DNA from: Herpomyces periplanetae
Lineage: Eukaryota; Ascomycota; Laboulbeniomycetes; Herpomycetales; Herpomycetaceae
Assembly (NCBI GenBank): GCA_009733715.1
Contig: WMKJ01000075.1
Span: 1-64,000, forward strand
Direction: 5' to 3'
Length of the DNA: 64,000 bases
Shown: in pieces, positions 5,978 through 42,546 of the stretch
Layout: each line of letters begins with the position of its first letter
Position numbering within the stretch: the first letter of the stretch is position 1
The notes under the pieces: model-generated
Told to the model about the DNA's origin: nothing
Databases searched by the model: none
Seen by the model: the letters and a program-made list of their open reading frames with translations, nothing else
Made by a program: the position numbers and the translations under genes

Positions 5978-5983
5978 CACGTG
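5978..5983. promoter_or_regulatory. CACGTG E-box near the midpoint of the PacC pair
   Basis: The palindrome lies within TTCACGTGACA, 802 bp from the left start codon and 753 bp from the right one. It follows the minisatellite directly. CACGTG is the core bound by fungal bHLH factors of the Cbf1/Pho4 type; which factor acts here is not known. Confidence 0.55.
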
Positions 5984-6419
5984 ACACTGTATTGATGCGC
6001 CCGAGCCGAAGTGCCCAAGGCGGTTTGCGCTCCAAGTCTCGATTTATCGTCCTCATATCTAAATTTACACTATCCTTTCAAGTTTATATCATTTCCTATA
6101 TACCCTTCTACCCACCATCCAAACTATATCATACACCTAACATGTCTATAGCGCCCTAGCCTTTACAGTAAAATCATCATCCATATACGCCCATCACCAA
6201 TTATTCACAGTTTATCACCGTCCAACATGTAAATTATAACCCCCGCACACTAGCATCCATAATACCATAATTTTTGCCATCAAATTAAACCATCTACTAC
6301 ACTTCATCAAATTCCAATTCCAAATCATGGCAAATCACTACAAATCGTTCCAAACTTCTCGGACCGCCTAAACCGCCTGAACCGCCCGATCACCCCGACC
6401 CCCGAACCCGCCGGCATCT

Positions 6420-6425
6420 CACGTG
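6420..6425. promoter_or_regulatory. CACGTG E-box upstream of the right PacC-like gene
   Basis: Sequence TCTCACGTGACAT, 311 bp upstream of the start codon at 6737. It repeats the TCACGTGAC context seen at 5978, 50202 and 59519. Confidence 0.5.
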
Positions 6426-6736
6426 ACATACGAACCGAAGGAGAGTCATGTGACCTGGTTTCGTGCACAAAACGCGCGAAATTCTCGAGATTTTCAAAAG
6501 AATTTGTAGAATTGGATTCTTCCACAAGGAATTTTACATTGACATAAAATGGCATTTTACTCATAATATTTCGCAAAATATTAAAGTTTCAATGCTATCA
6601 ATTCATTTGATAAATTTTAATACCAACAAATATTGTATTTTCATGCCCGCACACATTCTTCTTATACTCTTTTCTCCACCTACACAATTGCTAAAATTCA
6701 CCCTCCCTTTCTATCATATTAATCACCACTTTATTT

Positions 6737-9069
6737 ATGACCACTTCTCTATTAAATACCAAATCCAATTTTGTTAACACTTCAAATTTATCCAGATTAT
6801 ATGGAAATTCTTCCTCCCTGCTCATGACAGTTTCCGAAGAGTTAACCGATTCGTCCATGTTTACACTAAATACGCTTTCAAACTCTTCCGAAAACGTGTG
6901 TTCTACAAAACTTTCTCTATCCTCGTTAAATCGTGAATCTAGACCTCAGGAAACCTTTCCAAAACATCCTTCATCCACCCCTACCCTTACAAAATCAAGC
7001 ATTCCCGATAGTGCAACATTAACGTCTTCAACAAACTCCCCGCTAGGGCGCCTTGCTTGTCAATGGCTAAATTGTACCGAACACTGTACATCTCCCGCTC
7101 AACTCTACGTACGGTTTCTTTGATATTTACCTAAACTTAAACATTTGGATTATTTATTACTGACGCCATTTAATTCTTCATTTACCCTCTTCTGATTCGT
7201 TTAATTTTACCAATTAATTTAGGATCATGTGTGCAGATCACATATCGGTCGCAAAAGTACAAATAATCTTAACCTTACATGTCAATGGGCTAGCTGTCGA
7301 ACTTCAACGTTGAAGCGTGATCATATCACGTCTCACGTACGTGTCCACGTTCCCTTAAAGCCTCACAAGTGTGAAAGCTGTGCAAAAGCATTTAAACGTC
7401 CCCAAGATTTGAAAAAACATTTGAAAACTCACGCCGATACTTTACCGACTTTTTCCTCTACCTCATCGCCTCAAAATCCCCCTCGTAAATCCCTTTCGTC
7501 CCACCGCCAATTTTCCAAAGGTAGCCCTTCCAACAAAGTTACTCAAACTAATCGCTTTTGTCCGTTCAATCGTACTGCTAATTACCACTTGCTTAACCCA
7601 AATTTTCCTACACTTTTGCCTCTATATTCATCACCCTTCACTTCTTATCTCCCTTTGAAATTTTCATGCGTGTAACAATTCCTTCTTTTTTCTCAACTCG
7701 TTCATCTTCCCCTCCCCATTTTTTAAATCTCCATTTCACCGGTATAATAAGCTAATCTCTTCTTCTTATAGTCTTGACAAATCTTAGACAAATTGCCGCC
7801 TCAGCTACTGATTATTGCGGTAGTGTATCCGATAATGCTAAACCTTTTGATGAACCAAATAACGTACCGTCAATTCCCTCAACTTCTCTCGACAATCCGG
7901 ATCATATTAAACATGACCCAACAACTATTTACCCTGAATCCTCCTCTTTCGACAAGGACAATCTTTCTCATGATACATCTTCTTCAATTTGTACATTATT
8001 TAATGTTCCATCCAAATCCGCCGGACCCTGTAAGGCTATGGAAGCCTTGATCAAATTTTTGTCCGGCATAAAAAATTCTAATATCTGTTCAACTGATCAT
8101 AACGATAGTTCATTATCACCACCTTCATCTCATGTTCACCAATGCTCTGCTGAAACGGACAATCCTTTTTTTTCTCACGCTCTACCTGACTTGACGTATA
8201 TATCCACAGAAATCCAAAACATTGTATCCAAGGAAGAGTTGCTCGTCATCGAAGGAATTTTAACTGATTACGTCGATATGATAATGTCGGGAAAGTTAGC
8301 TATGAATAAACCCAAATTTTCCAAGTGTACGGAATCTGACCTTTCTGCATTGCTATCCAAATCTGCTCCCTCCCCTTCATCATCTTTGGCATCTTCTTTA
8401 TCTTCGACCTCATTATCGTCATCCTGGTCTTCATCTGTCAATCATCCCGTGAAAGTAAAGGGAAACCTACCCTCCCAAGTCGGTTCAGCTGTCCTAACAC
8501 CATTGCTTCTTCATACAAACCTTAAAGATAATGTTAATCAGGATAACCAGATCCATACAGACAATTCTCCTATCTCTAATTTTTTAGTGAGAAATTCTTG
8601 GGATATCTTCAATCAATCTCATCGTGAAAATGTCACTACCCATGATGATTGTGTTGAAATATTTGATCAATCAAATAAATCATTTTGCCCCCATCGAGAA
8701 AATGATGATGTAGTGGAAAAGACTTATCCAATTGATAATACAATTGACCCATTGCTGTGTGCAGAAGAGTGCCATATAGACAAAGGAAATCTTGACCTTG
8801 TGAAGCCGTTGGTATTAATTGAACAATCCGATTCCAAAAATTCAGTTAAAATCCCGTTAATTTCATCTACCGTCAAAGTTATTCAATCGATAAAATTGCT
8901 CGTTCGTGAACGTTTAACGGCCCTAGACGCTGAATGTCAAAAAATTCTCCAATGCGTGAATACACAAGTACAAAGTTGTGCGCAGCATGGACAATGTGAT
9001 GATGATAATCATAACGGTAACAGTATCGACAACAATAATTCGATTGAATCAACTTTCTATTCCGACTAA
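6737..9069 (+). CDS. pacC: PacC/Rim101-like C2H2 transcription factor, long copy
   Basis: Three exons, 6737-7108, 7223-7520 and 7772-9069, encode 655 residues. Fingers are C108/C113/H126/H131 (split by intron 1 exactly between LY and DHVC), C144/C149/H162/H166 and C174/C177/H190/H194. The linker [13 protein letters not shown] and the block PLKPHKC are diagnostic of the PacC/Rim101 family, which activates alkaline-responsive genes after proteolytic removal of a C-terminal inhibitory region. Exon 3 carries the [11 protein letters not shown] block shared with the left copy and then about 400 residues of Ser/Asp/Asn-rich sequence with a hydrophobic segment near the end. Intron 1 is 114 bp (phase 0) and intron 2 is 251 bp (phase 1). 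The length fits full-length PacC proteins, so I take this as the canonical copy. Family assignment is firm; the intron 2 donor is inferred. Confidence 0.87.
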
Positions 9070-9394
9070 ATCCTCCAAACTTACATGACCAAATATATCT
9101 CCCGGTTTATTCCATCGTAATCATCCGTTTGTTTCTCGTATCGTATACGTTGTATCTTTTACTTCTTTTGGATACCTTTTTCCCTTACCGTCACCACTTC
9201 AATTGTCCATTTCCATCTACTAAACTCGTCCTTTTCACTTTGTTGAAAATTTACCTTATAATGTTCATTCGGTTTAAGCTTATATCAGTCACACCGTATT
9301 CTGCTATGCCAATGGGAAAAACTAAGTTTCATTCAACGTGAAATTATCACAAAATGTCGGCGGTGAAGCTAATCTGATTTTCTAGTTCTGTAAT
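9070..9394. other. Convergent 3' spacer, no gene seen
   Basis: A 325-bp AT-rich spacer between the stop codon of the long PacC-like gene and the stop codon of RPS12 on the other strand. Presumably it holds both 3' UTRs. Frames in it do not resemble proteins. Confidence 0.6.
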
Positions 9395-10049
9395 TCATCC
9401 TACCGTTGATCGATTTTTCAGGTAGTCCATGATCACGGATCTTTCAATACTCTCTTCTCCCCATCCCCTTACTACGACACATGAACATTTGACAACCTTT
9501 TTAGTATTTCCCTCCCTATCAACTTGACCTGTTGAATCGTGTTACCATGAATAATTCATCCATTCAATTGTGTGCATGAAAATATCCTTTCAAAGTAAAG
9601 TAATAGCTCATCATTGTCGTAACTTACATAGTCCCGCCATTTCCCCCAATTGAACTCCATCCGACACCTTCATCAAGGGAATATTATTCTCTTTGCAGAG
9701 TGCACAGACCAATTTTTTGTACGCATCCTCATCGCATCCGTCGTTCAATATACAAATATGCGCTTCCTCACGATCCAAAGCCTTGCAGCATTCTCGTAAT
9801 CCCCTAACTAAACCATCGTGAATTAACGCTATTTTTAAGGCTCCTTTTAACGCATCTGTAATCGGCATTTGACCCTTTGGTGTATCATTAGAAACTTCAA
9901 CATCTCCAGTTTCTTCATTACTATCGCTATGTTCACTTGAATGAACACTTTCTTCGTCCGACTAAATATATTTTGTTAGAATATACTATTCAAAAATAAT
10001 GTTTTCTTTCATCATGAAATCTTCAATTGACTTAATTTTTCCTCACCAT
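9395..10049 (-). CDS. RPS12: Ribosomal protein eS12 (RPS12)
   Basis: Three exons: 10049-10047 (just the ATG), 9961-9628 and 9528-9395; introns are 85 and 99 bp. The 156-residue product is the small-subunit ribosomal protein eS12. The N-terminus is acidic ([14 protein letters not shown], like yeast Rps12). The core contains [18 protein letters not shown] and [11 protein letters not shown], and the spliced end reads [19 protein letters not shown] followed by RGWGEES, matching the family C-terminus. The first intron follows the initiator codon directly. The exon 2/exon 3 junction splits the Cys codon TGT and restores the family sequence, which confirms the splice. The gene shares a 512-bp divergent promoter with PEX14. 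Expected to be highly and constitutively expressed. Confidence 0.95.
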
Positions 10050-10561
10050 ATTTCCTCCCTGTTTAACAAGATAATTTTAACTCCCAACTTTTAATATTTC
10101 TTCTAAACCTATTCCCGAAATAATTCTTTATCAAACCAAACCAAACCAATCCAATCCAATCCAAAAACTTCGCGGAAATTCCTCCCAATTTATTTTCCTC
10201 TTCGCTTAACCCATTTTCACGCCCAAATTTATCTTCTCCAAAAGTGTGCGCACCGCCACCCATTACTAAGCCCACTTCGCCACTCAGTCACGTGCTGATT
10301 CCTTTATAAACTCGATTTTTCGTGCCGAACGCGAAACTTTTTCTTTTCCTAAATTTTTTTCCATTTTTTGGCTGTTTAATCAATTTATTTCGTTGTGTAA
10401 AATCTTTGACAAATTATCTTGAAAATCTCTTGATTTGGTCTTTTTTAACTTGAACTTTGACTTATGGTCTTAACTTTCTCTTTAATTTCTCGTCCTCTCT
10501 TTTCCCTACTCTAATATATGCCGGTTCCACTCCCATTTATTTATCATTTTATCGTTTAATC
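10050..10561. promoter_or_regulatory. Bidirectional promoter RPS12/PEX14 with central CACGTG
   Basis: The start codons of RPS12 (minus) and PEX14 (plus) are 512 bp apart. A single CACGTG (10289-10294, in AGTCACGTGCT) lies 239 bp from one ATG and 267 bp from the other. An AAACC/AATCC pentamer repeat (10133-10167) lies on the RPS12 side, and a T-rich block lies on the PEX14 side near 10315-10450. Confidence 0.6.
10133..10167. repeat. Pentanucleotide repeat AAACC/AATCC
   Basis: Seven or so 5-bp units (AAACC then AATCC) lie in the upstream region of RPS12, probably in its 5' UTR or core promoter. On the RPS12 coding strand this reads GGATT and GGTTT repeats. Confidence 0.75.
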
Positions 10562-11923
10562 ATGTCTTTACGTGAGAGTTTAATCAATTCCGCCGTAAGT
10601 TATCATCTAAACTCTATACCTCTGCTAATCATCTTTATTTTTACTCATTTTTACTTACTATCCACAGGTTGTCTGTATGTACCTCCAATCTTTTCTATAC
10701 ATTTCATCTACCTTGCGCTTTCTAATTTTACTCTCCTAAAAGTTCTACGTGATCCAAACGTCGCCAATGCTCCCCTCGAAAAAAAAATCGCCTTTTTACA
10801 AGCTAAAAATTTATCTCAATTGGAAATTGATGCTGCTTTATCCCGCTCCACCACCAGTCCTACCCCTTCGTCCCCTACCAACATCGATTCTTCTTCACTT
10901 AATTCCACTTTTCCCCCAAAACCTTTTTTGCCCCCATTAAACCACTATGACTACTACTCGGATTCTTCTCGCAATTTGTACGTTATTTTCCCCTACTTTT
11001 TTTCATTGCAAATCATCCATCCCTCTTCTTCCTTTCACTGACTCTTCAATATCCTTCCCAAAATCCATCCAGCCCAAAACGCGATTGGAGAGATTGGTTC
11101 ATCATGGCCACTGTACTAAGTAGTTTTGGTTACGGTCTATACGTCACCGCAAAGGTATTCCCTCTTTTTCACTGGCATTATCATACTCTAGTTCTAATAC
11201 CTCATCTAGCGTTACATTGTCCCTTTGATAAAACCTCCAACGCCTTCTTTAATTGAACAAGACAAAGCCGAGATAAAAGCTACCTTCGATAAAGCATTTA
11301 CCCTTTTGGACCAATTAGCCTCCGAAACTGCTGCTATAAAAGCTTCGGAAGATGAACGTAAGGTTAAATTGGATACAATTCTAACCCAGCTTGAGACTAC
11401 CATATCAAACCTTAATGAGTCCGAATCTCGCCGTTACGAAGAATCCCGGAAAGTCTCCGATGAGCTGAAAGAATTGCGGGATCTTATTCCACGATCTGTT
11501 AATTCACAACGTGAATTGGCCGAATCAAGATTCACTGAGTTGAGTCAGGAATTAAAAAGTTTCAAAACCCTTTTCCGAAATCGTCTTGCTGCCGGTACGA
11601 TTAACAATACTACTAACCTTGCTTCACGCACTGTTAACTTTTCAACCCCAAATTCTGATGGTACTCACCTTTCAAATGGCATTAAAGAATCAACTGAACC
11701 CAATGCTATATCATCCATCGTTGAAGCCTCGATATCTGATTCTGGCGAACCCGATGAATGCATGACAAATGGTATAACTTCTACTTCGACTCCTCAACCA
11801 CATACTGATCTACCCCCTTCCGATGATTCTTCAGCCGGTATATTTACTTTTCTGCCCTCCAGATTCGTTGAAACGGGTAAAGTCTCCATCCCTGCCTGGC
11901 AATTAGCCGCTAAAAACGCTTAA
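10562..11923 (+). CDS. PEX14: Peroxisomal import docking protein Pex14
   Basis: Five exons: 10562-10594, 10668-10674 (a 7-nt microexon), 10743-10977, 11073-11154 and 11210-11923; 356 residues. Pex14 docks the PTS1/PTS2 receptors Pex5 and Pex7 at the peroxisomal membrane. The conserved N-terminal domain is assembled across the first three exons: RESLINSA, then VV from the microexon, then FLRDPNVANAPLEKK and AFLQAKNL. A Ser/Pro-rich linker follows, then RDWRDWFIMATV with the membrane segment near residues 101-120, the KRYIVPLIKPPTPS block and a coiled coil to about residue 240. Skipping the microexon shifts the frame out of the Pex14 domain, so it is required. All intron phases close. The gene is divergent from RPS12. 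Confidence 0.93.
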
Positions 11924-12633
11924 ATTTTCATTGTCCATGCACCTCGTAGTACCTTTATACTCTTTTTTTAATCCTTCTACTCACCTTCCCACCCTATATT
12001 GGTCAACTTTACTTTTACATCAAATTAATCCTTTGCTATACGTCTCTGTCATTATCATCATATCTCTACACGACAAGTGTTTTGTCGTCAAATTGTATAC
12101 ATATCTATTCCACTACTTTCATTATCGTCATATGTCATATAGCATCGTCATACTCTTTCTTGATATCCCCGTGTTCTTTCACTACTTGTGTATATTGTAT
12201 GTTTACTTTGATTATAATTTAACAATTACCTTTTCCCTACCATCCAACATTAAACTCTCCATCATTATAATCCTTCATTATTTTAACTTTCCCTCCATTT
12301 CTTCCCCTTCGCCGCCCAAAATTCGCGTTTTGCTGTACCTCTCTGTCCACGTGACACTCCCCGCATAGCTTAGTAATCTTTGTTTACACTTTGCTTGGGG
12401 ATCGTCACGTGTTTTGGTTTTTGTAAAAGGCGAAAAGTTGTGATGGTTGAAAGATAAATTTCACGGCCAGATGAGAATTTTTTTCGAAAATTGATGTTGT
12501 TTTACGCGTTAATCAGAATAATTTTCGATATCATTTATTTCTCATTTCGTCAAACCTTTTGATTATTTCGTTATTAATATCATATGGCAAATCATTTTCC
12601 CGTAGGGTATAAAGCATAACTAGTTTAATCAAA
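11924..12633. promoter_or_regulatory. Intergenic region upstream of NDC80
   Basis: A 710-bp spacer between PEX14 and NDC80. It is pyrimidine-rich to about 12310, then carries CACGTG at 12348-12353 (CCACGTGACAC) and at 12406-12411 (GTCACGTGTT), 223-286 bp upstream of the NDC80 start codon. The long frame at 11931-12368 is low-complexity hydrophobic translation of T/C-rich DNA and is not a gene. Confidence 0.55.
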
Positions 12634-14946
12634 ATGGACATTAATCCAAATTCAGTTCGTCGGCATCGTGAGGTAAGAAGATATTATATTTCTTGGAAGG
12701 AAAAACGCTAAATTGTCACGTTTAAACTTATTAACACATAATTTTGCATACAGACGCTAGGACCAATTAGTCAAAATATCTCGAGTATACCCATGCCCGC
12801 TTCTGCTATGAAACGATCAACATCAATCGCCAACTTTCATATTCTACCACCTTCTAAAATACATAAGCGTACCATGAGCTCGGTAATGGGCAGTGGGTCA
12901 TTAAATGCGTCAACTAACTCGGGAAACAACTCTACCGATGCTCTTTTACAGAGAAGAAGTAGCGTTTACAGTGCTCGTCAATCAATGGGAGCCGGTGTAA
13001 CGGCTAACCGACAATCGTTTTTTAGCTTTGCTCCCGTACCTCAAGTTCCTGTACCAGATCCTCGTTCATTGAAAAATCGTACTGTACAATCGGAAATGGT
13101 CCGTGAGCTAACAGATTACTTATCACGTAATAACTTTGAAGTTGAGACTAAAATGAATATTGCCAAATCCCTACGTGATTGTCCCTCACAAAAAGAGTTC
13201 AACGCACTGTTCAAGTGGCTATATAGTCGAGTTGACCCTTCTCATGTTTTTCAGAAAGGTTTGGATACTGAAATGCCAATTTTACTGCGGCAACTGCGCT
13301 ATCCTTGGGAGAAGTCCATCATGAAAAGTCAAATTACCGCTGTCGCACCAAACAATTGGCCAACATTCTTAGGCGTTTTACACTGGATTATGCAATTAGC
13401 CGAAATGATGGAAGCCTTTGCGGCCGGAAAGTACGATTATGCATGCGTTGAAGCGGGTTATGATATTTTCGGCGACCGAATTATTTTTGCTTTTTTAACA
13501 AATGCCTACCGTGATTGGTTACAAGTAGATGAGGATGATGAAGATGATAATGCCGATAGAATAATTGAACCTCACGTTCAAGAGATGGCCATGCGATTTG
13601 ACGAAGCTAACCGAGAGCATTTGGAACAAGTTAAGATACTAGAAGCAAAAAATAAAGAACTAAACGATAAAATTGAAGATATGGGAAAGATCGTTGAAAG
13701 GCGCAAAAAGCTGGACGAGACTGTCTGCGTTTTAGAGGAAGACTTGGGAAAATTTGAGCAATACAATGGGCTCATGAAGTCGAAAGTTGAACGTTACGAA
13801 AATCGTATTAAGATTTTAAAGGAAGAAACCGAAAAGGTTCAGTGTCGAGTAAGAGAAGTTGAGCGCGAAAAAGATGAACTCCAAAAAATCGTTGATGAAC
13901 GTGGCTTATCTATGGAGGATATGGATCGAATGAACGCAGAACGTGAACGGCTTCACAAAAACATCGATGTTACAGCATCTAAGCAAGAAGAAGCTACACG
14001 CCGTGCAAGACAATCTGAACTTGAAGCTGAAGCAAAATATGAGATGCTCGAATCTGCCGTAGAATCTTATAATACTCTAGGTTACCAAATTGCCATTATA
14101 CCATCAACAACCGCCAACGCAAATAATCAAAATTTCGAGTTAACAATAGCACTAAAGGATTTCGATTCATCATCAACTCTTAAAAATGAAATTGGAAATG
14201 ATGAAACTTGCTTCATACGTAGTACCACTGACAATAATCGTTTATTATTAGACTCATTTACAGGATATTCAGCTCATCAAGTATTAAGCCAAGATGTAAG
14301 AAGTGAATCTGATAGCATCCGCAGTCGACTTCAATCTTTACGTAAGGATATATGCGATCGAAGAAACGCTGCTCTCGAAAAAGATATGATTAACCAAGAA
14401 ATGCTTGGAAAAGTTAAAGAAACAATGGACGATAAAAAAACCGAAGTTGAAGCTCTAGGTCACCGAGTCCGCGCGGCTGAAGAAGAATTCGAAAAGACTC
14501 GAGAGGTAAGCTAGGAAAGCGCTACCCAAGTGCATAGGGGAATATGACGTAGTGGATGTGTAGGGCTGAACTAATCACGTGGTGTCATACAGATCACGAA
14601 CCAGCAGAAAATGGCATCGGACGCTCAGATTGAAAAGGTGGAAAAGGAGTTGGCTAATATGAGGGCTGAATTAACGCAGAGTGTACAATTGACTGAGCAA
14701 GAAGAAATGAATGCTAATTTACATTATGAGCAGTTGACATTGACGGCTAATCAGCTTCGGGAAAAATTTCATACTGAACTAGCTCGAATATTAGATGATG
14801 TTATAAACTTTAAAGTTCACGTTCAAAAATGTTTAGAGGAATACGAACAGTTTGTCGCCGAAGTTGTCGAAGCTGAGTGCAATAGTTTAGAAAGTGAATA
14901 TCAATCATCCGATAATGAAAATGGTCAATCAAATGATGCTGTGTAA
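12634..14946 (+). CDS. NDC80: Kinetochore protein Ndc80
   Basis: Three exons, 12634-12672, 12754-14505 and 14593-14946 (introns 81 and 87 bp), give 714 residues. Ndc80 (Hec1) is the microtubule-binding subunit of the outer-kinetochore Ndc80 complex. A basic, Ser-rich tail ([13 protein letters not shown] at the start) precedes the calponin-homology head beginning near [11 protein letters not shown] (residue 112), with [23 protein letters not shown] and [16 protein letters not shown], all family signatures. Two long heptad regions (about 270-430 and 560-690) form the coiled-coil rod. The start is chosen because the 13-residue first exon joins in phase 0 to the acceptor at 12753. Two CACGTG sites lie 220-290 bp upstream and another lies inside the last intron. 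It ends 56 bp from the convergent INO80C gene. Confidence 0.95.
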
Positions 14947-15002
14947 ATTTGAAAATCACAATATTCCAAGATTGACATTTTCATGTTAATGAGATGATTA
15001 TC

Positions 15003-15521
15003 TCATTTCAAAATAGTATGAGCAGCTCGTGCTTCAAGATACTTTTCCGGCATATCTTGTGATAGCGACAATATGAAAGCAAACACTTCTCGATTATGAT
15101 ATCGCAGCCTCGTTTTTGGATCCAAATATGGTGCCACTAAACCTGTAATATCACAATATCGACGTTGAGATTGTGGTTTAAGTGAAGGTGCTGCCTCCAT
15201 GCTAGAATATGATGGCCGTGTCCTTTTAATCGTTGGTAAAATATTCGTCGAGTTTATCGATTCATTATTTCCTTCTCCAGCCGTTACACTTGTCGCTGCC
15301 GCTGCCGCCGCTTGTTCTGCTTCGCGTCGTCCCACCTCTAGCATAATTTGTCGGATAGTTTTATTTCTTCTTTGAGGTGGACGCCAGTTTGAGTTCCGAA
15401 AATTTCGCTCATACGTGTTTATATTCAACTTGTCTAACAAATTTTGATGATTTATACTCTCTTCCGCCATTGCCGCTGCTATCACCGGATTTCCACCTGT
15501 CGATGGCGTTAATGGTGCCAT
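15003..15521 (-). CDS. IES6: INO80 chromatin-remodelling subunit Ies6/INO80C (YL1-C domain)
   Basis: A single exon of 172 residues. The N-terminal block RNFRNSNWRPPQRRNKTIRQ and the C-terminal YL1-C domain (RYCDITGLVAPYLDPKTRL, YHNREVFAFI) identify Ies6/INO80C. This subunit with Arp5 couples the INO80 ATPase to nucleosome sliding and H2A.Z exchange in the nucleus. An Ala-rich low-complexity linker joins the two parts. The length is normal for the family and the ATG at 15521 precedes all conserved sequence. The gene converges on NDC80 and shares a 310-bp bidirectional promoter with DAD4, with CACGTG at its centre. Confidence 0.92.
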   Translation of the reverse strand: MAPLTPSTGGNPVIAAAMAEESINHQNLLDKLNINTYERNFRNSNWRPPQRRNKTIRQIMLEVGRREAEQAAAAAATSVTAGEGNNESINSTNILPTIKRTRPSYSSMEAAPSLKPQSQRRYCDITGLVAPYLDPKTRLRYHNREVFAFILSLSQDMPEKYLEARAAHTILK

Positions 15522-15831
15522 TTACCACCTAAAAAAATTATCCTTGAATAAACAACTTATTTGCATCAACGTTTTTCTCAAATTCCCTACACCAATATCC
15601 CATCTAAATCCCTAATCAAATCATATTCTCCAAGCCTTTATTCCCTCCACTTGAATTTTCTTCCTCCGTATCACGTGCTCTGGTACGGGAATAAAGTTTG
15701 ATCTCAGGCGTGTGCGTCGTGAACCCAATTTTTAACGCAAATAGTTTGCTCTTTTAACAAAGTTAATCAAAATTTGATTCGCAAAAAAGTCAAATTAGGT
15801 TGTTTGTGAAAAGTTGAACCTGATAATAACA
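15522..15831. promoter_or_regulatory. Bidirectional promoter INO80C/DAD4 with central CACGTG
   Basis: A 310-bp region between divergent start codons. The only CACGTG (15672-15677, in TATCACGTGCTC) lies 150 bp from the INO80C ATG and 154 bp from the DAD4 ATG, essentially dead centre. Confidence 0.65.
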
Positions 15832-16377
15832 ATGGTACGTTAATCAAGTTAAGTTTCGATTTCCATAGTCTTTAATAGATAAGTTTATGTTAACAGTATT
15901 ATAGGAAAGCCCACACGAGCAACAACAATCGCTATTGTTAAATCGAATTATTAATAATGTTGTACGTGGGTACATATATTCATAGAAGGTTTTGAACTCT
16001 TCAAACTGTGTGTTTGCATGAATATATAATGGAATAGTGAAAATTATGCCTGGCTAAGCGTGTTAAGGGAAAACAAGATGGTATCCGTGTAGAGCAAGTT
16101 GAACGAATCAATCGTTTTATTGAATAAATCGCTGCACGTGAGTATTTATCATAAAGTTTACCAAATTGCGAAGGCTTACAGCGCAATAGGCTATAAATGT
16201 GGAAAATATGAACGCTGAGCTTGTAGCGCAGATGTTCAAAAATTACGAATCAAATGTCATGTTTCACTTGGAGGGTAAGTTGGGGTTGTGAACTAGTGTT
16301 TGCATGGTATGTGAATATTGCTTACAGAATTCAATTATCGTCATGTAGCTACAGGTGAAAGTGAAGATTTAGCTTGA
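15832..16377 (+). CDS. DAD4: DASH complex subunit Dad4
   Basis: Assembled by hand from five short exons: 15832-15834 (ATG alone), 15905-15961, 16093-16137, 16190-16274 and 16328-16377; 79 residues. The product starts [20 protein letters not shown] and continues [15 protein letters not shown], then [19 protein letters not shown] and ESNVMFHLE. Yeast Dad4 begins MENPHEQVQANILSRIIGNI and has LNESVAILN at the same place. Dad4 is part of the ten-protein DASH/Dam1 ring that couples kinetochores to microtubule plus ends. Exons 2-4 are well supported. The last intron (16275-16327) is uncertain: without it the protein would end a few codons after HLE. The introns are 70, 131, 52 and 53 bp. The gene shares a 310-bp promoter with INO80C and lies under 1 kb from NDC80, its functional partner. 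Confidence 0.88.
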
Positions 16378-16530
16378 TGTTGCCGATAAATTTACAGTAA
16401 CGAACAATTATAATGGTTAGCTGAAGCAAGATATGTGAGATGAAGTGAAGTATATATAATATATGTATATGCGTACACGCATGCACGCATGCGCGCCAAC
16501 ATGCATGTATACAAAGCAAAGGAAACAATA
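16378..16530. other. Short convergent spacer with alternating purine-pyrimidine tract
   Basis: The 3' spacer between DAD4 and the cytochrome b561-like gene. It contains GTATATGCGTACACGCATGC-type alternation at about 16455-16512. Both 3' ends point into it. Confidence 0.55.
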
Positions 16531-17334
16531 TCAAGGATTTTCCGGATCAGCAGTGTTGACGATAGCTTGATAACCGGACGGCCGTGTTAATGAATGTGTG
16601 ATGCGAGTAAAGCAGTCAACTGTGAAGGTATAGGTGTCGTTTAGCCTGTGTCGCAAAAGGTATACAGCATGACCGATGATAGCGGCGTAAAAGGTGGCAG
16701 ATACAAGGGTATACAATGTGTAAGCAGGAGAGACGGCAAAGGCGTGTCTAGCCAGACGAAATCCTAAAATTCCGTTAAACATACCGAGGCCGATAACGGC
16801 GCGGCCAAAATAAACGTGAAAATGTGTATAAACACTCGATATGCTGCGTTTCACGAAAATTCGATGGTGAAGGTATCCCGTTACAGGCTGGACAGCCAGT
16901 ATTCCGCAAACGAACATTCCGATAAGTGGATGAGTACGCGTAAGCTGCGTAAAATCCGGAGGGATAGTGTGTCAGAGTGTATGATGAAGATTAACTCTGG
17001 AAATATTTTTGAGCGTACACACGAGTCGACTTACTATATGCCAATTTAATGCTAATTTTAACCCCGTTCCCAAGCAAACTAGCATTACGCAACATGCAAA
17101 GCTTTGTACGTAAACGTGAGCTTTGAAAGCGTAAGTTGATGGAAGAAAGCGTATGGCGAGACTACCCATGGGAAAAAACAATGCCATAGCCAGCGCCCCA
17201 TGGAAACCATGCACGAGGATTAACTTTTTGGTGAAGCTGTAAGAAAGGGTTGAGATATTTGATGATGATGGTGTTGCTACATCCGACGTTGTTGTAACGT
17301 GAGATGGTAGAACATTGGAACTGGTTGGTAGCAT
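16531..17334 (-). CDS. Cytochrome b561/ferric-reductase-type transmembrane protein
   Basis: Two exons, 17334-17035 and 16944-16531, with a 90-bp phase-0 intron; 237 residues. It has about five clear membrane helices and conserved His positions of the cytochrome b561 (FRRS1/cellobiose-dehydrogenase-like) domain. These are HGFHGALAM (H42), HVYVQ (H73), HPLIGM (H105, just after the splice) and HFHVYFGR (H143). Such proteins bind two haems and carry electrons across a membrane, usually from ascorbate or a fused DOMON haem domain. Here there is no DOMON domain and no clear signal peptide before the first helix. An in-frame stop lies upstream of the chosen ATG, so any further N-terminus would need another exon. 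Substrate and membrane are unknown. Confidence 0.82.
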
Positions 17335-18679: not shown

Positions 18680-18760
18680 GTGTTTTGTGTTGTGTGTTTT
18701 GTTCTTTGTGCTTTGTGCTTTGTGCTTTGCTCTTTGCTCTTTGCTCTTTGCGCTTTACTC
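18680..18760. repeat. Heptanucleotide CTTTGTG/CTTTGCT tandem repeat
   Basis: TTGTGTTTTG-like sequence passes into three CTTTGTG units and about four CTTTGCT/CTTTGCG units. Non-coding and pyrimidine-rich. Confidence 0.75.
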
Positions 18761-19782: not shown

Positions 19783-20918
19783 TGACCACTAACATTTACC
19801 GTATATCAACCCTCCGTATCATTCGCCCTCTTACGGCTAAATTGGTTAACGTTCAACTTTGATATTGCTGCCGCTACTTCTTTCGTTGCTGTCGGTATCG
19901 TTACGTCTCAATCAAATCCTTTTAAACTTCCAACATGCATTAATTTCGTCAAACTCACTTAGCTAATTTACCCATTTGGTGGTTGGTTAATCAATCAGTT
20001 AACTTCTCGTCTTCACTAAGTTGTAAAGTAAGTTGCATACTTATCCGTTTATTAATTTTCCTTCAATGCAAACTAATATTCCCTTCCATTTTGTCGTTTA
20101 TATTAACATTTCCCCAGTTAATTTATCCTGCCATGCAGGACTTCGTCACTAGGTCGTGTTACCTTGCTCTTATCGTGCACTCGTTCTACCCTCACATTTC
20201 ACAATACATTCGGTAAACCATTTACCTTCTTCAACTCATACACACCCTCATACACTTTCCCTACTCCACTCATCCTCGATATTCCGTGTCTAGGTTTGCT
20301 TCCATGCGCGCACCTGCGCGCAAGAATTAGCACCCATAGCAAACGCTTCTTAATTCAGGTGTATACCAACTTTCATTCGCGCTCGCGCCCTAGCTTTTCA
20401 TACCCCGTTCTCTTACTTATATACTACCTATTCAGTCCTATCTACCCATCCTCTTTTTCTCACTTTCAATCAGTCCACTAATTTCTTTCAATCTAATCCG
20501 CTTCCCTCATCAAAGTTGCGTTTGTTTTGCATATAATCCAGTGCCTCGCTGAATTAACAAGCCCTTTGTTCTCTCCTCTCCTTTTCTCCACCTAACCTTA
20601 CTCACTCTAAATTCTATATACATTTAACGTGCTAAAGTTTGATGGAACTAGCCTTAATGATCCGGACTCTGCCGTATATTCCTTCGATTATTTTCCAACT
20701 TAGCTGGTCTAAGTTCCCTTCAACCTAACATTGTGACCTCATTCCCTTCTCCCCGATATTCTGCCAATCCATCGCTTATTTTTACCTTATAGTTTGCATC
20801 TACACTCAATATTACTCGTTATCTTCCTCGTTTTTCTTCACTATCTACTCTGAGATATACACATACTCTCTCAAACCTTCGTTTATATCTTTTATATTCC
20901 CCTCAAGTTCTCCCCAGC

Positions 20919-20924
20919 ACGTGT
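20919..20924. promoter_or_regulatory. CACGTG E-box upstream of the Zn2Cys6 regulator
   Basis: Context CAGCACGTGTGATG, 197 bp upstream of the start codon at 21122, a spacing similar to other genes in the window. Confidence 0.5.
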
Positions 20925-33907: not shown

Positions 33908-34730
33908 GGCAAGACAAGATACTTAACGTAAAGGTTAAATGAAAGGACGGAAAGAGAGCAAAGGACGGGGTAATGGAGTAAAGTAAGCACGCATGAGCGG
34001 GAAAGAAAGCATATATAATTCAAGGCAAAGGGAATGATCTGGTGAGTGCAAGTTCCTTTGAGGCCGAAAGGTAAGATGGCACCGAAAGGAGAGTTCAAGG
34101 TAAAGAGGAATTACATTTGAAGCGGTAATATGAATATTGAAGGGTTCGCGGGACAACTAGTACGTAACTTTTTGTATTTGGGAGACTTTAGTGTGAAAGG
34201 AAAAGGGATAGGCGAAAAAAGTGACAACTGGGAGATAATGATAGTGAAGGAATATAGAGGAAGGCAAATAAAGTCAAAGAGGAAAAAAGAAGCATACAAA
34301 TTGAAGAATTTGACTCCGGCAAGAGAAGAGGAAGCAATGGAAATATTGGAGGAGTAGAAACAATGATAAATATTACGGTGGGAGAGGCTAGAAAAAGCGA
34401 TACGGCCAAATTAATTTAAATGGAATAAGAGACTTATTCTCTTAAGAAACATTGGCATGGTATGGCGTGTCATTACCCATACATTGATGGTGGAATATTA
34501 AAGGGGGACGAGGAGGGAAGAGGAGAGGGGGAAGAAGAGCTTAAGGGAAAAGGGAGGAGGCGACAGTTTATGAAGAGGGCAGTAATGATAGAGATAAGAC
34601 GAGGAGGAAGAGGTAGATGCACGAGAGTAAGTAGAAATAGCTAAACCACTGTACGACGGAAGACGACGAAAAGAAATCAAGAGAAAGAAAAAGCAAGGTA
34701 AATGGAAAAGTGGACAGGCGATGAAGTGAG

Positions 34731-34840
34731 CCGCGCGCTCGCGCGTGCGTGCGTGAGTTAAGTGAAGGAAATGGAAGGAAGATCGAGTATCGAATATGGG
34801 TAAGAGAGGTAGAGTAGCGCGCGCGCGTGTGCGCGCGCGC
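34731..34840. repeat. Pair of GCGC alternating tracts
   Basis: CCGCGCGCTCGCGCGTGCGT at 34731-34750 and a 24-bp GC/GT alternating run at 34817-34840, only 60 bp apart in otherwise A/G-rich DNA. These are classic Z-DNA-prone sequences. Confidence 0.75.
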
Positions 34841-36786
34841 AAGAGTGATAAAAAAGTGAAAGCTGGGTCGACAACTAGCTAATATGGTACGGAGCTAGCG
34901 ATGAGATTAACGCCGGATAACGGTTAACAAAGCTCTCAGTTAAAGCCCCACTCCAGGTATACGGGATAAAAGGCACTAAGAGGAGCAACAAATAGAGGAA
35001 GCATAGTTTGTGACATGAATAAAAATGTAAGGTATAGTTGTAAAGGCGTATAGTGGCCAATGATAAGGTAGCGCGAAATAATAAGCTGGTTAGGGTGGTG
35101 TTTGTTCCAAATATTGCGATAAAATATGCGAATATAGATTATTACCGGGGGGGGGAAGGGTGGAGGGGGGGTTAAAAGAAAAAATATATCAATAAAGACA
35201 AGGTAAAAGAGAAACAGGGGAAAGCAAACATGTCAAGTACGGTAAACGCTGAGTGCGATAAATAGGAAAAGGAATGGATGATGATGGCAAGTTTTTACGA
35301 GAAAGATGTGCAGTATTTTGGGCAAGTGAATGGGCGAAGAGAGTAGGGTACGAATAGTAAGTTAACGAGGTATCTGGGATCAGAATCTAAGTTTTTGGAG
35401 GAGAATATAAAATAAGTGGAAAAACGGAGTAAGTAAATGAGCCAGGTTTGGGGGAAATAAAAAATACGAGGGAGATAGTGAAAAGTATGAAAAGTGGGAA
35501 AAAAATGAGAATAAAATTGTAGATAAGAGAAAATAGTAATGAATTTAATGAATGGTCAGGGAAAAGTATAAAAAGGAAAAAAAGGAGCAATTCAACCTGA
35601 AACCAAATGAAAAGCTTCTTCTTTTATTTTGCACTAGGGGATAGTATAAATGGTAAAAAAAAGAATAAAATTGTGAAGGAAAGAAAAATGGATCATCAAA
35701 AGTGTATAACATGCCACGAGAAATGTATAACTGTATAGAGGGATATTATCTAAGCAAATACACTGGATGAGTTGAAATAAAAGGGAAGGAGAAGAGATGA
35801 GACGAGACGAGGGGTAAATTTTGAGGGGAAAATGGAAGGGATGAAGAATAAGTTGAGACGAAAGCGGAGGAAGTAGGGAAAGCACCAACGGTGAACAGCT
35901 TGGAAAGAAAAGTAGGAAGGATTAAGGGACTCTAGGAAAATCCTAATTAGGCAAAAGCCAGGGAACAAAGTAGATCCGACGGAGTTGGGCTGAAGGTGGA
36001 GACTTGGTGGAAATGAAGAGGGAAAGTGCGATGTGCCGGGCTTGTGTAGGGCTGAAAACCAGGTTGTATTAGTTCGGGTTGTCGAGGTGGTGATGGGTTG
36101 GTGTGTAGGAGAAAAGGTGAGGGTGTGGGAGTGATCGAGGTAGCATTTACAAAAGGTTGTGAATTTTGGGGGATATTTTTGTTAGGATGGGCTATACCTT
36201 TTTCCTGTGCTGGGTCAGTTGGGTGTTTCAAGTATTCAAGTTTCCTTGAATCTATGCAGTAAGCAATCCGATGGATTTTGGATTTTCAAAGATTCATGAA
36301 TACTTTTAATCATTCAGAATAAAATGGATGGTTCATCTTTGGTACATTGACCTTTTCTTCGATTAAATTTTATTAAGCTTTATCCGGGGAAAACTCCAAA
36401 GTAATCCGTTTAATGTAAAAAAGTAATTAAGTTTCCCTTGTTTCGACATATCGAGTAAACTTTACCAGATTTTGCTTGTCAAATTCACAATTCATGTGGA
36501 AACAAAGACTTACCAATACACATCTTATCATCAATCTCGCATTCAATTTACTAATTTTTCGTGCTTTGTTTGTTTCATACGCTACACGCGTATCCATCGT
36601 AGCCCGTAAAATACTGATTTATCGAGTATCCGTACGCAATTGAAGCTCATTACCACCGTAAGATATTAATTTTATCCCGTAGCAAATCTACTCACTTGTA
36701 TAACAGAGTCTCGTTACAATGTGGGTCGTTGGGACGCGCATGAAAATATATTTACTCGCTTGCTTGACAATTCTTTTCTGTGAAGT

Positions 36787-36880
36787 GTATGTACGTGTGT
36801 GTATGCATGCATGCATGCATGTTCGTACGTGTGTACGTGTGCGTGCTTGCTTGCATACGTGCGTGCGTCCGTGCGTCCGC
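36787..36880. repeat. Alternating purine-pyrimidine tract, about 95 bp
   Basis: GTATGTACGTGTGTGTATGC is followed by repeated ATGC, TACG and GTGC/GTCC units. It is the longest such tract in the window, in gene-free DNA. Frames crossing it give meaningless Cys/Val/Met or His/Arg/Thr repeats. Confidence 0.8.
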
Positions 36881-39642
36881 AAGTGTATCCTTGAACGCTT
36901 CAAACCCCCGTAAACGATTAACCAACTCTTCCTTCAAATGTACATGCACCATTATGCATCCTCATCTGATAATTGCATTCTCGTGATTTTCCAAAAACTT
37001 CTTGTAATGCATACCACTAAAAGTTTCATTCCTCCCCCCCCATTGACCTACTGTTATTAATGCCTATTTCAACCACTCACCTTGTTCATCTTTACGATAG
37101 AGCTGTAAAACTCGTATCCGTGCCCCAGATAAAAGATTCCCTATACCTTTTAACTTACAAAATACCGGCCAGATTTAAATTTTTAGTCTGAATTAGTAGT
37201 AAATTGTAAATGTTTTGCTTTGAAATAGTTAAACGTTACAATGATAATTATTTTTTGATTTTTCATTATCAATGTGTAAATGATCAAGGTAATATCCTTC
37301 GTTTTGATGGTTTACACTAGAAATTTTCATCGCAAAGATGCTAAAAATGTCTATTGAATATAATTCTGCGGAGCGAGGGTCGAATTTGCCTATGGATCAT
37401 AACTAATGCCCCATTTTCCACATTCCTATCTACCTTGCCTTTGAACAGAATGGTTTATACTGGCCTAAATTTTACGATTTTATCATATAAATTAATAGGT
37501 TTTCATCTACCAGGACCGTGATAGCTTGGCCAAATTCCACGCCGTGTAAAAATTCTTTTTACCATTTAGTATTTGACCCCTTTTTCCCATTTTATATCGG
37601 CGTATGTCGACATCGTGAAATATCACTTTTCCCCATATTAGCGGTAAGACGACAGCTAGAACCCTGCTATATTTACGTTATTCCGTTTTTCTACCTAACC
37701 GACTAATCTAAATCAAGCGTTTAACTTTTCCACATAGTAAGCTTACGGTATAAGCTAAAATCATTTGTCCTAGTCTATAGTAACCTTTAGTACCCATAGT
37801 TCTTCATCATCACAATGTTCGTAATACATACGTTAAACTCTTTACCTACAATGCGCTCGTTTATCACTCAATCAACATCCCATATCCTCAGACAACCCGT
37901 ATATTCAACTAGCTTGATTACACTTGTAGGGTAAAATTTGGAGGGTATTTTGTCCATGTACTTAAATTCCCGTTAAAACACACTCTATATTTCATGTGGC
38001 AATTTTTTTGCACGGACATATGAATCTGGGTAACTTTCTGTTGCCTCAGCTTTACGGATTTTTACTTCCACGCTGAGTTAAATTATCAAATGAGCTATCA
38101 GATCGTATAGTTTGATGGTACATTTTGAGCATTGAGGTATCGTGGAGATGGAAAATTTAAATATATAGGTATAAGCTTATGCGATGTTTGACCACTTATC
38201 CACGCAACCTTTAACCAGGTTGATGCACCGTCTCTTGGACAGTCATGTCTTGCAATTTATACAAGATCAGCAATTTTACGGCAGTGAAGGTGGAGTGGGG
38301 TTGGGTTAAATGGTTAAAAATGATGTTCACATAGATCTACTGGACATTGCTCAGTTTAGAAAATTGTTAAAGGCATTAAGTTATCATCAGTGTCAGACAA
38401 GCTTACAGTTATCAAGTACATTGGAAAACTTCAATAAGTACTCACCTATACTTAACACTTTACCCGGGTTAATTCATTTGGTGTAATTAATCTTCGATTA
38501 AGCAATTTAACAAAGTAATGAAAAATTACAAATTAATAAGGAGTTAAAGGCATGCACATCTCTCAATCAACAGACTAAATAGGTAGATAGTGTGACAAAC
38601 TATCCAATTTTTTAACGATCTTTAAAATACAAAAAGGTTAGGGTTAACTCCAGTTACCATTAACGGACAGATTCCGTCGCATATGTCAGTATTGACAAGT
38701 TGCGGGTTGATTACTCCGACATAACTTTGCAAATTGTGTTTGGTACGGGCGTGTTCAGTTGCCTTGATAAAAAACTTTTCACATAATAGATCGAAGTCGA
38801 GTAATATCACGTTAAAGAGAAAATTTGCCAGTGTAATGCGCAGATATTCTGATAATCGCAAGGGATGCTCTCATGATCATTCCATTATAACAAGTTTTAA
38901 TACTATAAAATGGTATATTGAAAACCTTATGCTCCATGTGCTTTATGCAACAGTGAATAGCTTTGTCAAATGATCAAGCTATCATGATTAAAATAGAATA
39001 TTCCGTATATTTAACTGTTATAAAGCTTATAATGTTAACGGATTTAGATAACTATTTAGTTGGCTTAAGTGTATCTGAAGAATGGGTGTAAGAACATATG
39101 GAAGTTCTCCCAGTTTCACATATCCAAGAGAATTATTATCCCATTATTTCAATGTTTTCAGTGGAATGATCACAAAGTAATAGGGGAATCGAGGAAAAGG
39201 ATATTGCTTAACGTTAAAAATTAGTCCAAATTTTGTATACATTTTATGGAATTGGAGAGGATAAGTTAAGTAACAGACTTGTGGTTTTTGGGTGTATAAC
39301 TCATTCAATTCAAGATGAATTAGGCGCAGAGATAGCATATTTGTACAAATTAAGCTCATCTTCACTAAAGTACGGACCGTAAACCGGTAGATTCTCGTGT
39401 ATGGTTTGACGGGGTTTACGATGTTTCACCGAATTACCAATTACCGACAAATGGTAGTTTAAGCCAGTATACGTTATAAGAACATACGTTTCAGTTAGAA
39501 AGAGGTCAAATCAGTGAGTTAGCCTTAACGACACTTTAAATGCAAGGAATAAAACAAAATGTTAAACCAATTGCTTAATACTGAGGGTACTGAGGAGACA
39601 TCTATCGCCACAACCAACATCACCATTAATACTTACATACGA

Positions 39643-39853
39643 CTACCCTGATTTTATCACTATTGTCATTTGTTTAACAGTCCAATTATATATTTTCATG
39701 TGAGTTCTCATGCAGTAGAGCATTTCCACGCAATTTGTATTGTCTGAATCTTGCAGACGATAACCGGCCTGTAAGCGTATAAAGCCGTTAATCAGTTGAA
39801 CATCAATTTGCGTACCACCATGTAATAACTGTCGCATGGCATACATAAACTAT
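39643..39853 (-). CDS. Weak candidate exon, unknown protein
   Basis: A minus-strand frame reads MYAMRQLLHGGTQIDVQLIN and runs 67 codons to a stop. It has an acceptor-like TTCGATAG just before it and mixed, non-repetitive composition, unlike other frames in this gene-free region. I cannot match it to a family or find convincing companion exons. It may be chance. Confidence 0.15.
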
Positions 39854-41135
39854 CGAATGAGTATAGATTTATTCATGCAAACTTTCCCTTTAATCGAAAT
39901 TTTATTATTATATTGACCAAGTTTTTTTTCCCTTTTCATTTTCATTCAAACAAGAAATTTTCCCAAAAACCTCCTGTCGGCTAAATCTTCTCCCGATCCG
40001 ATCCAAGCCACAGCCGCTCTGACGTCATGTGCTGAATAAGCGTTTTCGTGGCGCAGGTGTGGCGGAAAGTTTGTGGATTGCGACAATTTTGGAGGGACGC
40101 GAGGGAATTTTACTTGAAAAGAAAGTAAATCTTTGGAAATTACAGACACCGTTTTTTTTTGGGGGGGACTGGATAATCTATACCTAAGCATATTGTATTT
40201 GGTTGGCGTTAAAATTGATTGGCAAATTAATTGCTAAATTGGGCAAAACAGGCAAGCATACAGTCAAGTTAATTATTCCAGGTCAAGCCGTCCTTATACA
40301 CATGCTGTATGTTTAATCGTTGCAGGTCTTGTTCATAATGGTTAGCAGTGTTGTGGTTAACTAACAGTATGTATGGCATGCATTATCCTGGAATGTGGTA
40401 CGTAGAAACAAGATTTTCTCCCGTTACGCGTTGCGTATTCACATAACCATCACTATTGTTTTTCTAGTGAATCCGTGCGGCGAAACTAGTTGAAATGTTG
40501 AATATGAAATGGAACTATTTATTAAGGTTTTTCATATCGCCAATAATTTCATGTGACAATTAAAATCTTGTACACCTTAACGGACTATAAACTTGAAAGT
40601 TGGTGGTGATCTAGTCTACAACTTAGTTAACTGTGTTTACACAGGGCAATTTTACTCTTGAATCATTCGGCAAAATTGACATTAATAAATACATGGTGAT
40701 GATAGATTGATTTATTGCCCGGATAAGGTTGTGATGAAATACTTCACATCTCAGTGCATCGTATATTGCGTAAATGTCAAAGGTCAACTGCTATAGGGGC
40801 TTAATATGAGTCGGGGAGACCATTGAGATTATGTTACCCGGCATAAAATTATTTACTCAGTCGTCAGAATGATCACTGTCAAATCTTTAACACATAGTTA
40901 ATTCAAAGGTCAACACGAGCAGATATTCGTTTTATTGCTTTATGCTGTGAGTGCGTGTGTGAATGTGTACGTACACTTGTACGCTGTGTTGCATCTTTAG
41001 TAAGTACCAATTCACCATTACAGCCTTGCCACGAATGAGAAAAAAAGATGTTTGATATGCGATTTAAAGGTGTACGTCTTGCCCATGTTTGCAATTCTAC
41101 TGAAAGGAACACTATGAATTCAAGTACACCCTTTT

Positions 41136-42162
41136 TTAACTCCTTAGATTGGGCGATTGTATGCGACGAAAGCATATTGTTGTAACAGTTTGACCGGTCT
41201 TTCCTCCGAAGGTGAACTTTGGGTAATCGATTACGTGGAATACATGAAAACAGAAGGGTTGATTTGTTATGAACCAGTCAATTAATTCTTCTTTGCTCCA
41301 ATTACAACTTGTAATTATGAAGAGAGCGTTGGGTCGCATTAATCGGAATATCTTGTTAGGGTAGATGGAACAAATTGGATTTCCTTGTTCGGTAACCCCT
41401 CCAGATAATGAGATAGCATCAAAAGTTCCCTTATCTAGCACAATGTCATAACCTTTGGATGTATTTGGAAACATTTTCAATAATTTATCACCATCTTGTT
41501 CCAGTACATCGTGAACCATAAAGGAAAAGTTGTCTCCAAAAGATGGGGGATCACGTGAAGCATCACGGGAACTCGGAGGTTCCCCGATGACCTGCTCACG
41601 TGCTTGGCGCTGACCAATGGCGCGAGCGAGAGCAATGCTTTGTAAGCTATAGTCAATGCCAAGCATAGATCCCGTCCAGCCACGTTTACGTAATTGGAAG
41701 AGCATGTGACCGTTTCCGGTCCCGACGTCGATAATTGTGGCTGAGGACTTTTGGAGCGGATTTTGCGGATTAACGGCTAAGTGATCGAGGAAATTGATAA
41801 CACGCTTCTCGACACCAGACTCTTCAAACCAAATGGTTCCCTTGTTTTGAGGAGAATTGATGTGATTGCGTAGATCAGTTGAGTAAACTTCATCCCAACT
41901 AAATGATTAAAAATGTGCGATAATTCAATAAATTTGTGTGTTAGTACCCGTTTACGTGCGTACACGTACATATATAATTGGATCAAGTTTATTAAACACC
42001 ACAGACAGTAATAAGGAGGAAAAATTAATTGAGCAATGTTCAACTCGAATAATTTTTCCTAATGGTACTATGCTGAATTTTCTCAATTGATATTGCTCTA
42101 TACACAACGTTAACTTACTATTCTCTTGTGCCTAGAATACTCGTGGAAAGTGATGCTGGCAT
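41136..42162 (-). CDS. EFM4: eEF1A lysine methyltransferase Efm4 (METTL10 family)
   Basis: Two exons, 42162-42119 and 41898-41136, with a 220-bp phase-2 intron; 268 residues. The exon junction rebuilds LGTREYWDEVY, the usual start of this family. Class I SAM-methyltransferase motifs follow: IIDVGTGNGHM (motif I, residues 70-80), LGIDYS (acidic residue of motif II), DIVLDKGTFDAISL (about 166-179) and the C-terminal GGKTGQTVTTICF. Efm4 methylates a lysine of translation elongation factor eEF1A in the cytoplasm. Length agrees with yeast Efm4 (about 257). Two CACGTG hexamers in its coding region (41552, 41596) are probably coincidental. It shares a 384-bp divergent promoter with RAD30. Confidence 0.92.
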
Positions 42163-42546
42163 TATAATTTGATTCAGTACTTTGCTGAACAGTTACCCTT
42201 AACTAAATACCCATTTAATTGACACGTCGAGTGCACACTTAATAAAACTCTCACAATAACCCTTTTACGTTTCCTCATAGTAGCATGGAGAAGGCATAAA
42301 ATTCCAAAAATGCACTTCAGCCCTATGGGTCACGGGACACATTGTAGCCATTCGTCACGTGGTCTACCGTTGGCGCGTCAAAATCGTGTTGGAACACCAT
42401 TTTTATGGATTTCGTGCACTTCTTCGTCAAAATGTCTACTTCATCATAATCCTTGATAATCTTAACAATATATCATGGTTGTCGATACTTGATATTTATC
42501 ACTGTATGGTTTGAAGTGAATTTTACGATCAAGTTTACATATTTGA
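42163..42546. promoter_or_regulatory. Bidirectional promoter EFM4/RAD30 with central CACGTG
   Basis: Start codons are separated by 384 bp. A single CACGTG (42356-42361, in TCGTCACGTGGTC) lies 193 bp from the EFM4 ATG and 185 bp from the RAD30 ATG, at the midpoint. It repeats the layout of the INO80C/DAD4 and RPS12/PEX14 promoters. Confidence 0.65.

What the first reader, a model, noticed from the sequence alone, without database searches (positions are those of the whole stretch)
5978..42361. A CACGTG palindrome sits at the midpoint of divergent gene pairs
In four of five divergent pairs one CACGTG lies almost at the geometric centre between the two start codons. The distances are 150/154 bp (INO80C/DAD4), 193/185 bp (EFM4/RAD30), 239/267 bp (RPS12/PEX14) and 802/753 bp (PacC pair). 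In the three compact pairs it is the only CACGTG in the region, always as TCACGTG. Such symmetry suggests one E-box factor (Cbf1-, Reb1-like in role) that sets a shared nucleosome-free region for both directions. The distances are read from sequence; the mechanism is inference.
Basis: partly seen in the sequence, partly recalled or inferred. Interest (0 to 1): 0.75.

Follow-up and report, generated by a model that had tools for sequence, protein, structure and literature searches.

The report
E-box promoter motif in an ascomycete
A short DNA word that is probably bound by a common fungal protein (Cbf1-type) sits in many promoters of this fungus; its near-perfect centring between three closely spaced gene pairs in this stretch is real here, but was not seen in the other closely spaced pairs examined.

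Summary
I count six divergent pairs, not five; two are not central, and the PacC-like pair has a second, off-centre site. Inside the window CACGTG is the most central of the 32 hexamers (of 2080) present in all three compact pairs. Outside the window exact centring fails: 0 of 9 sites in 6 compact divergent regions (up to 1000 bp) lie within 6% of the midpoint. The sites do lean to the middle (mean u 0.32, controls 0.54), as an upstream-distance preference (13 sites, 144-656 bp, median 246) predicts without a midpoint rule. The motif is real: TCACGTGA occurs 666 times against 119 for its reversed control, while GCACGTGC, ACACGTGT and CCACGTGG show no excess, and the genome encodes a clear Cbf1 homologue. 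Best reading: Cbf1-type E-box sites in upstream regions, shared by both genes where divergent promoters are short. The kind is known from yeasts and Aspergillus; binding and nucleosome depletion here are inference. Ordinary, with a small unexplained local coincidence.

The parts
15672..15677 (.). CACGTG (TCACGTGC) between INO80C-like (start 15521, -) and DAD4 (start 15832, +); gaps 150/154
42356..42361 (.). CACGTG (TCACGTGG) between EFM4 (start 42162, -) and RAD30 (start 42547, +); gaps 193/185
10289..10294 (.). CACGTG (TCACGTGC) between RPS12 (start 10049, -) and PEX14 (start 10562, +); gaps 239/267
5978..5983 (.). CACGTG (TCACGTGA) near the centre between the two PacC-like zinc-finger genes (starts 5175, - and 6737, +); gaps 802/753; lies at the edge of a low-complexity tract
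6420..6425 (.). second CACGTG (TCACGTGA) of the PacC-like pair, off centre (gaps 1244/311)
50202..50207 (.). CACGTG in divergent region 49781/51154 (Tbf1-like gene / GDT1-like gene), off centre (gaps 420/946)
50648..50653 (.). second CACGTG of that region, off centre (gaps 866/500)
20918..20923 (.). CACGTG in divergent region 17334/21122, 198 bp from the right start, not central
   Evidence: the left start 17334 was set by hand

Best explanation
The sites are binding sites for a Cbf1-type basic helix-loop-helix factor. They lie where such sites usually lie in this genome, about 140-460 bp upstream of a start codon. When two divergent genes are only about 300-500 bp apart, one site at that distance from one start is necessarily not far from the middle and can serve both genes. 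The factor most likely displaces nucleosomes and keeps the shared upstream region open. The near-perfect centring of the three compact pairs in this window is mostly coincidence on top of that broad preference. Shown here: the motif, its flank specificity, its noncoding enrichment, the Cbf1 gene, and the absence of exact centring in the compact regions examined elsewhere. Inferred: binding, nucleosome displacement, action in both directions.
For: TCACGTGA 666 against 119 reversed, other palindromic flank forms not in excess. Noncoding enrichment in C10 and 22 of 24 noncoding sites with the T/A flank against 106 of 190 control sites, p 0.00034. Cbf1 homologue, E 2.7e-26 to yeast Cbf1. Upstream distances 144-656 bp in 13 of 14 non-divergent sites. 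The distance model predicts the outside lean (mean u 0.326 expected, 0.280 seen, P 0.29). Published: CACGTG nucleosome-depleted in most pre-WGD yeasts (PMC2897762, passages); TCACGTGATC among the top 5 de novo footprint motifs in A. niger (PMC8419926, passages); Cbf1 site tCACGTGa kept between yeasts (PMC2834713, passage).
Against: The three compact window pairs are more central than the distance model predicts (P 0.0012) and differ from the outside set (3/3 vs 0/6, p 0.012). The three compact sites carry the T on one side only, and the flank bias is not significant within the window (13 of 18 vs 40 of 63, p 0.35). CACGTG is not nucleosome-depleted in Y. lipolytica or C. albicans, so extension to this fungus is uncertain. 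Total CACGTG in C10 (33) is barely above three other palindromes (31 each). Gene starts outside the window come from my own gene model.
Confidence: 0.7

Rival explanations
1. A true midpoint rule: selection holds one E-box at the geometric centre of compact divergent pairs so that one nucleosome-free region serves both directions equally.
For: CACGTG ranks first of the 32 hexamers found in all three compact window pairs; a lean to the middle is seen outside as well (mean u 0.320 vs 0.538, p 0.007 for regions up to 1000 bp, with several sites per region counted).
Against: 0 of 9 outside sites in 6 compact regions with u <= 0.06, so at most about 39% of such regions could be exactly central at 95%; the lean weakens with region length (p 0.072 up to 2000 bp, 0.038 up to 5000 bp); the distance model explains it.
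Confidence: 0.08
2. The sites belong to another bHLH factor with the same T-flanked E-box, such as the MITF/USF-like protein L018, rather than to Cbf1.
For: Three bHLH genes were found, a lower bound; L018 resembles MITF and USF (E 1.1e-5), whose preference for T-flanked E-boxes is recalled.
Against: L017 is by far the closest to a protein known to bind tCACGTGa.
Confidence: 0.12
3. The bound factor acts mainly as a roadblock or insulator that keeps the two divergent promoters from interfering, rather than as a shared opener.
For: In S. [quoted passage not shown]
Against: That effect depends on closeness to the repressed start (20 bp in the reporter), whereas the compact window sites are 150-267 bp from the start codons; transcript starts here are unknown.
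Confidence: 0.07
4. Chance: the word is common by composition and means nothing.
For: Exact centring does not repeat in compact regions outside the window; CACGTG in C10 is barely above three other palindromes.
Against: 5.6-fold genome-wide excess of TCACGTGA with no excess of the other three palindromic flank forms; noncoding enrichment and flank bias in C10.
Confidence: 0.03

Closest known systems
Cbf1 sites as general regulatory factor sites in yeasts (PMC2897762, PMC2834713; passages seen)
   Same: Same core and flanks (tCACGTGa); Cbf1 homologue present; sites in upstream regions.
   Different: Nucleosome depletion was measured there and not here; Y. lipolytica and C. albicans lack it; no midpoint rule appears in the passages I saw.
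bHLH E-box TCACGTGATC in Aspergillus niger ATAC-seq footprints (PMC8419926; passages seen)
   Same: Same T-flanked palindrome as a leading promoter motif; linked there to ribosome and translation genes, as RPS12 is here.
   Different: Accessibility was measured there; divergent pairs are not discussed in the passages seen (the words divergent and bidirectional do not occur in its main text).
General factors that set promoter directionality in S. cerevisiae (PMC9481977; passages seen)
   Same: A sequence-specific factor between two opposing transcription starts.
   Different: There the factor limits divergent noncoding transcription when placed near that start; the direction of effect here is unknown.

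Membership tests
Cbf1-type E-box promoter element | Core CACGTG with a flanking T (TCACGTGA) | tested here: met
   TCACGTGA 666 vs 119 reversed; GCACGTGC 146 vs 157, ACACGTGT 126 vs 236, CCACGTGG 71 vs 91. In the window alone the flank bias is not significant.
Cbf1-type E-box promoter element | Enriched upstream of genes rather than in coding DNA | tested here: met
   C10 noncoding 0.280/kb vs coding 0.096/kb; controls 0.096 and 0.151; window 0.526 vs 0.131, controls 0.080 and 0.117
Cbf1-type E-box promoter element | A Cbf1 bHLH-zipper protein in the genome | tested here: met
   L017, HLH domain over cut-off, 121-residue alignment to yeast Cbf1 at E 2.7e-26
Cbf1-type E-box promoter element | Bound in vivo and nucleosome-depleted | not testable with these tools
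   needs ChIP-seq and MNase-seq
   C10: 13 of 23 intergenic sites in divergent regions (40% of length), p 0.08; with predicted genes under 100 aa dropped, 10 of 23; promoters with a site within 600 bp: 7/24 divergent, 4/22 tandem; window 8 of 11, p 0.006
   window 3 of 3; outside 0 of 9 sites in 6 regions up to 1000 bp
   outside regions: p 0.007 (up to 1000 bp), 0.072 (2000), 0.038 (5000); sites in one region are not independent

The most novel reading that the evidence does not exclude
A subset of compact housekeeping divergent pairs (INO80C/DAD4, EFM4/RAD30, RPS12/PEX14) is under selection to keep a single Cbf1 site within about 15 bp of the midpoint: a geometric rule for symmetric sharing of one nucleosome-free region, while pairs with unequal promoters keep the site nearer to one gene.
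Probability: 0.08. Interest if true: 0.6.

Novelty: new member of a known kind. Interest (0 to 1): 0.25.

Why it matters
It extends the known Cbf1/E-box promoter grammar to a small unnamed ascomycete genome, and shows that apparent geometric symmetry in compact promoters can largely follow from an upstream-distance preference. If the midpoint rule were true, it would give a simple sequence-level test of how one factor shares a promoter between two genes.

Tried and rejected
Rejected: composition alone as the source of the motif. Rejected as a general property: an exact midpoint. Not decisive: preference for divergent over tandem promoters.

Literature: seven searches; passages read in five papers; one paper on divergent genes was not held. 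The search for CACGTG with bidirectional, promoter, fungi, motif and intergenic found 1 paper, on plants. I saw no report of midpoint placement of CACGTG in those listings and passages; that is not proof that none exists.

Conservation of site positions in relatives could not be tested: the genome tool states that this genome has no relatives there. No structure was predicted.

Rows dropped or set by hand. Window annotation: two HMM models (375-488 and 5470-5792, low-complexity) were dropped; DAD4, the EFM4 first exon and the gene 16531-17334 were added by hand, and the NDC80 start was set to 12793 instead of the HMM's 12634. C10: predicted genes under 50 aa were dropped, and region 132457/132471 (13 bp between starts, left model 66 aa) was left out. 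Of 15 motif-centred loci, 6 regions entered the divergent test (L001, L008, L010 with L011, L012, L013 with L014, L015); L002-L004 were coding, L005 was tandem and used for distances, and L006, L007, L009 lacked a clear neighbour on one side. The outside region 134169/134725 has a doubtful left gene (0 Pfam families); without it the outside set is 5 regions and 8 sites, still 0 central. The right start of L012 (24891) is probably not the true start of that gene, by its sequence; that region is longer than 1000 bp and not in the compact set.

Full report
The observation. CACGTG occurs 22 times in the window against 8.25 +/- 3.06 in 100 dinucleotide shuffles, largest 19. I read the start codons of the four pairs directly. 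EFM4 exon 1 begins at 42162 and joins as LGTREY|WDEVY. RPS12 and DAD4 each begin with an exon that is only ATG. PEX14 begins at 10562, the INO80C-like gene at 15521, RAD30 at 42547, and the two PacC-like genes at 5175 and 6737. Pfam supports RAD30, a methyltransferase (EFM4), YL1_C (INO80C), the L7Ae/S12e family and Pex14_N; the C2H2 fingers of the PacC-like genes score below their curated cut-offs.

How special it is inside the window. With u = 0 at the midpoint and 1 at a start codon, the three compact pairs have u = 0.013, 0.021 and 0.055. Of 2080 canonical hexamers 32 occur in all three regions; CACGTG is first and the overlapping ACGTGA second. There are six divergent pairs, not five: 49781/51154 (u 0.385 and 0.268) and 17334/21122 (u 0.895; left start set by hand) are not central, and the PacC-like pair has a second site at u 0.600.

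Independent test. The window is contig C192 of a 13.79 Mb, 220-contig genome. The polymerase eta protein is at best 54% identical over 64% of its length among the 120 hits listed of 2110, and the named ones among them that I know are mostly Dothideomycetes and other Pezizomycotina (classes recalled). I took 180 kb of contig C10 and 15 loci of 3 kb around TCACGTGA, and wrote a gene-finding HMM. It recovered the ATG-only exon of RPS12; it missed DAD4 and the first exon of EFM4. Outside the window there are 7 divergent regions up to 1000 bp, of which 6 hold CACGTG; four of those six were fetched because they hold the motif, so this is not a rate. Their 9 sites have u from 0.182 to 0.716; none is at or below 0.06. 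The best supported case is MCM2 against a UBR-box gene: 287 bp, gaps 93/188. Mean u is 0.320 against 0.538 for 12 control-palindrome sites (p 0.007); for regions up to 2000 bp 0.402 vs 0.510 (p 0.072), up to 5000 bp 0.413 vs 0.513 (p 0.038), where 1 of 21 sites and 1 of 72 control sites have u <= 0.06. Sites in one region are not independent. So there is a lean to the middle but no sharp centre.

Why the lean. I counted 14 CACGTG sites upstream of genes not known to be divergent (four from the window; two with unknown far neighbour). Thirteen lie 144-656 bp from the start codon (median 246), one at 2157. Drawing distances from the thirteen gives an expected mean u of 0.326 for the six outside regions; taking the most central site of each, 0.280 was observed (P 0.29). 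The three compact window pairs remain unusual under that model (P 0.0012 for the mean; 0.0021 for all u <= 0.06) and differ from the outside set (3/3 vs 0/6, p 0.012).

What the motif is. Genome-wide CACGTG occurs 3315 times against 2258 for GTGCAC, and TCACGTGA 666 times against 119. GCACGTGC (146 vs 157), ACACGTGT (126 vs 236) and CCACGTGG (71 vs 91) are not in excess. In C10, 22 of 24 noncoding sites have T before or A after the core, against 106 of 190 control sites (p 0.00034); in the window alone 13 of 18 vs 40 of 63 (p 0.35). A 5' T is reported to keep out Pho4-like proteins (PMC8419926, passage). Three bHLH genes were found, a lower bound. L017 is a Cbf1 homologue (E 2.7e-26); L018 resembles MITF/USF (E 1.1e-5) and L016 Max (E 1.8e-4).

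Mechanism. In yeasts CACGTG is nucleosome-depleted in most pre-WGD species, but not in Y. lipolytica or C. albicans, and Cbf1 is proposed as an ancestral general factor (PMC2897762, passages). In A. niger TCACGTGATC is among the top 5 de novo footprint motifs and linked to ribosomal genes (PMC8419926, passages); in A. nidulans TCACGTGAC is enriched in VeA and LaeA ChIP peaks (PMC10101098, passages). In S. cerevisiae general factors, Cbf1 among those tested, were reported able to repress the divergent direction (PMC9481977, passages). The most likely reading is a Cbf1-type opener in the upstream region that serves both genes where the region is short. Binding and nucleosome effects were not tested.

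Divergent preference. In C10, 13 of 23 intergenic sites fall in divergent regions that make up 40% of intergenic length (p 0.08), more than any of 23 control palindromes (mean 3.26, max 8); with predicted genes under 100 aa dropped it is 10 of 23 (controls mean 2.78, max 8). Promoters with a site within 600 bp: 7/24 divergent and 4/22 tandem in C10; 10/12 and 2/8 in the window. A preference for divergent pairs is suggestive only.

Verdict. The exact symmetry is local and did not appear in the compact regions examined elsewhere. The element is a well-known kind of promoter site in a further organism.

Noticed in passing
window 47109-49781 (-): The gene left of region 49781/51154 encodes a C-terminal Myb-like domain closest to Tbf1 (E 9.3e-9; Pfam Myb below cut-off). 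Tbf1 and Cbf1 are both studied as ribosomal-gene regulators in yeasts (PMC2834713, abstract start and listing), so a second general factor may be encoded here with two CACGTG upstream.
   Followed up: partly
window 20918-41552: A 20.6 kb stretch with no CACGTG (P 0.007 at the genome rate, post hoc), including a gene-poor stretch from about 33.9 to 41.1 kb in the HMM annotation.
   Followed up: no
window 1409-2679: Six CACGTG in 1.3 kb with no gene model there.
   Followed up: no
window 3293-5175 (-) and 6737-9069 (+): Two divergent, clearly related zinc-finger genes (PacC-like; similar finger exons), with a long low-complexity tract (about 5560-5960) between them.
   Followed up: partly
window 10047-10049 (-) and 15832-15834 (+): RPS12 and DAD4 both start with an exon that consists only of the ATG, followed at once by an intron.
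   Followed up: partly
window 14576 and 16135: Two CACGTG lie in splice features: one inside the predicted last intron of the NDC80 gene, one spanning the likely exon-intron boundary of DAD4 (read). Probably not regulatory.
   Followed up: no
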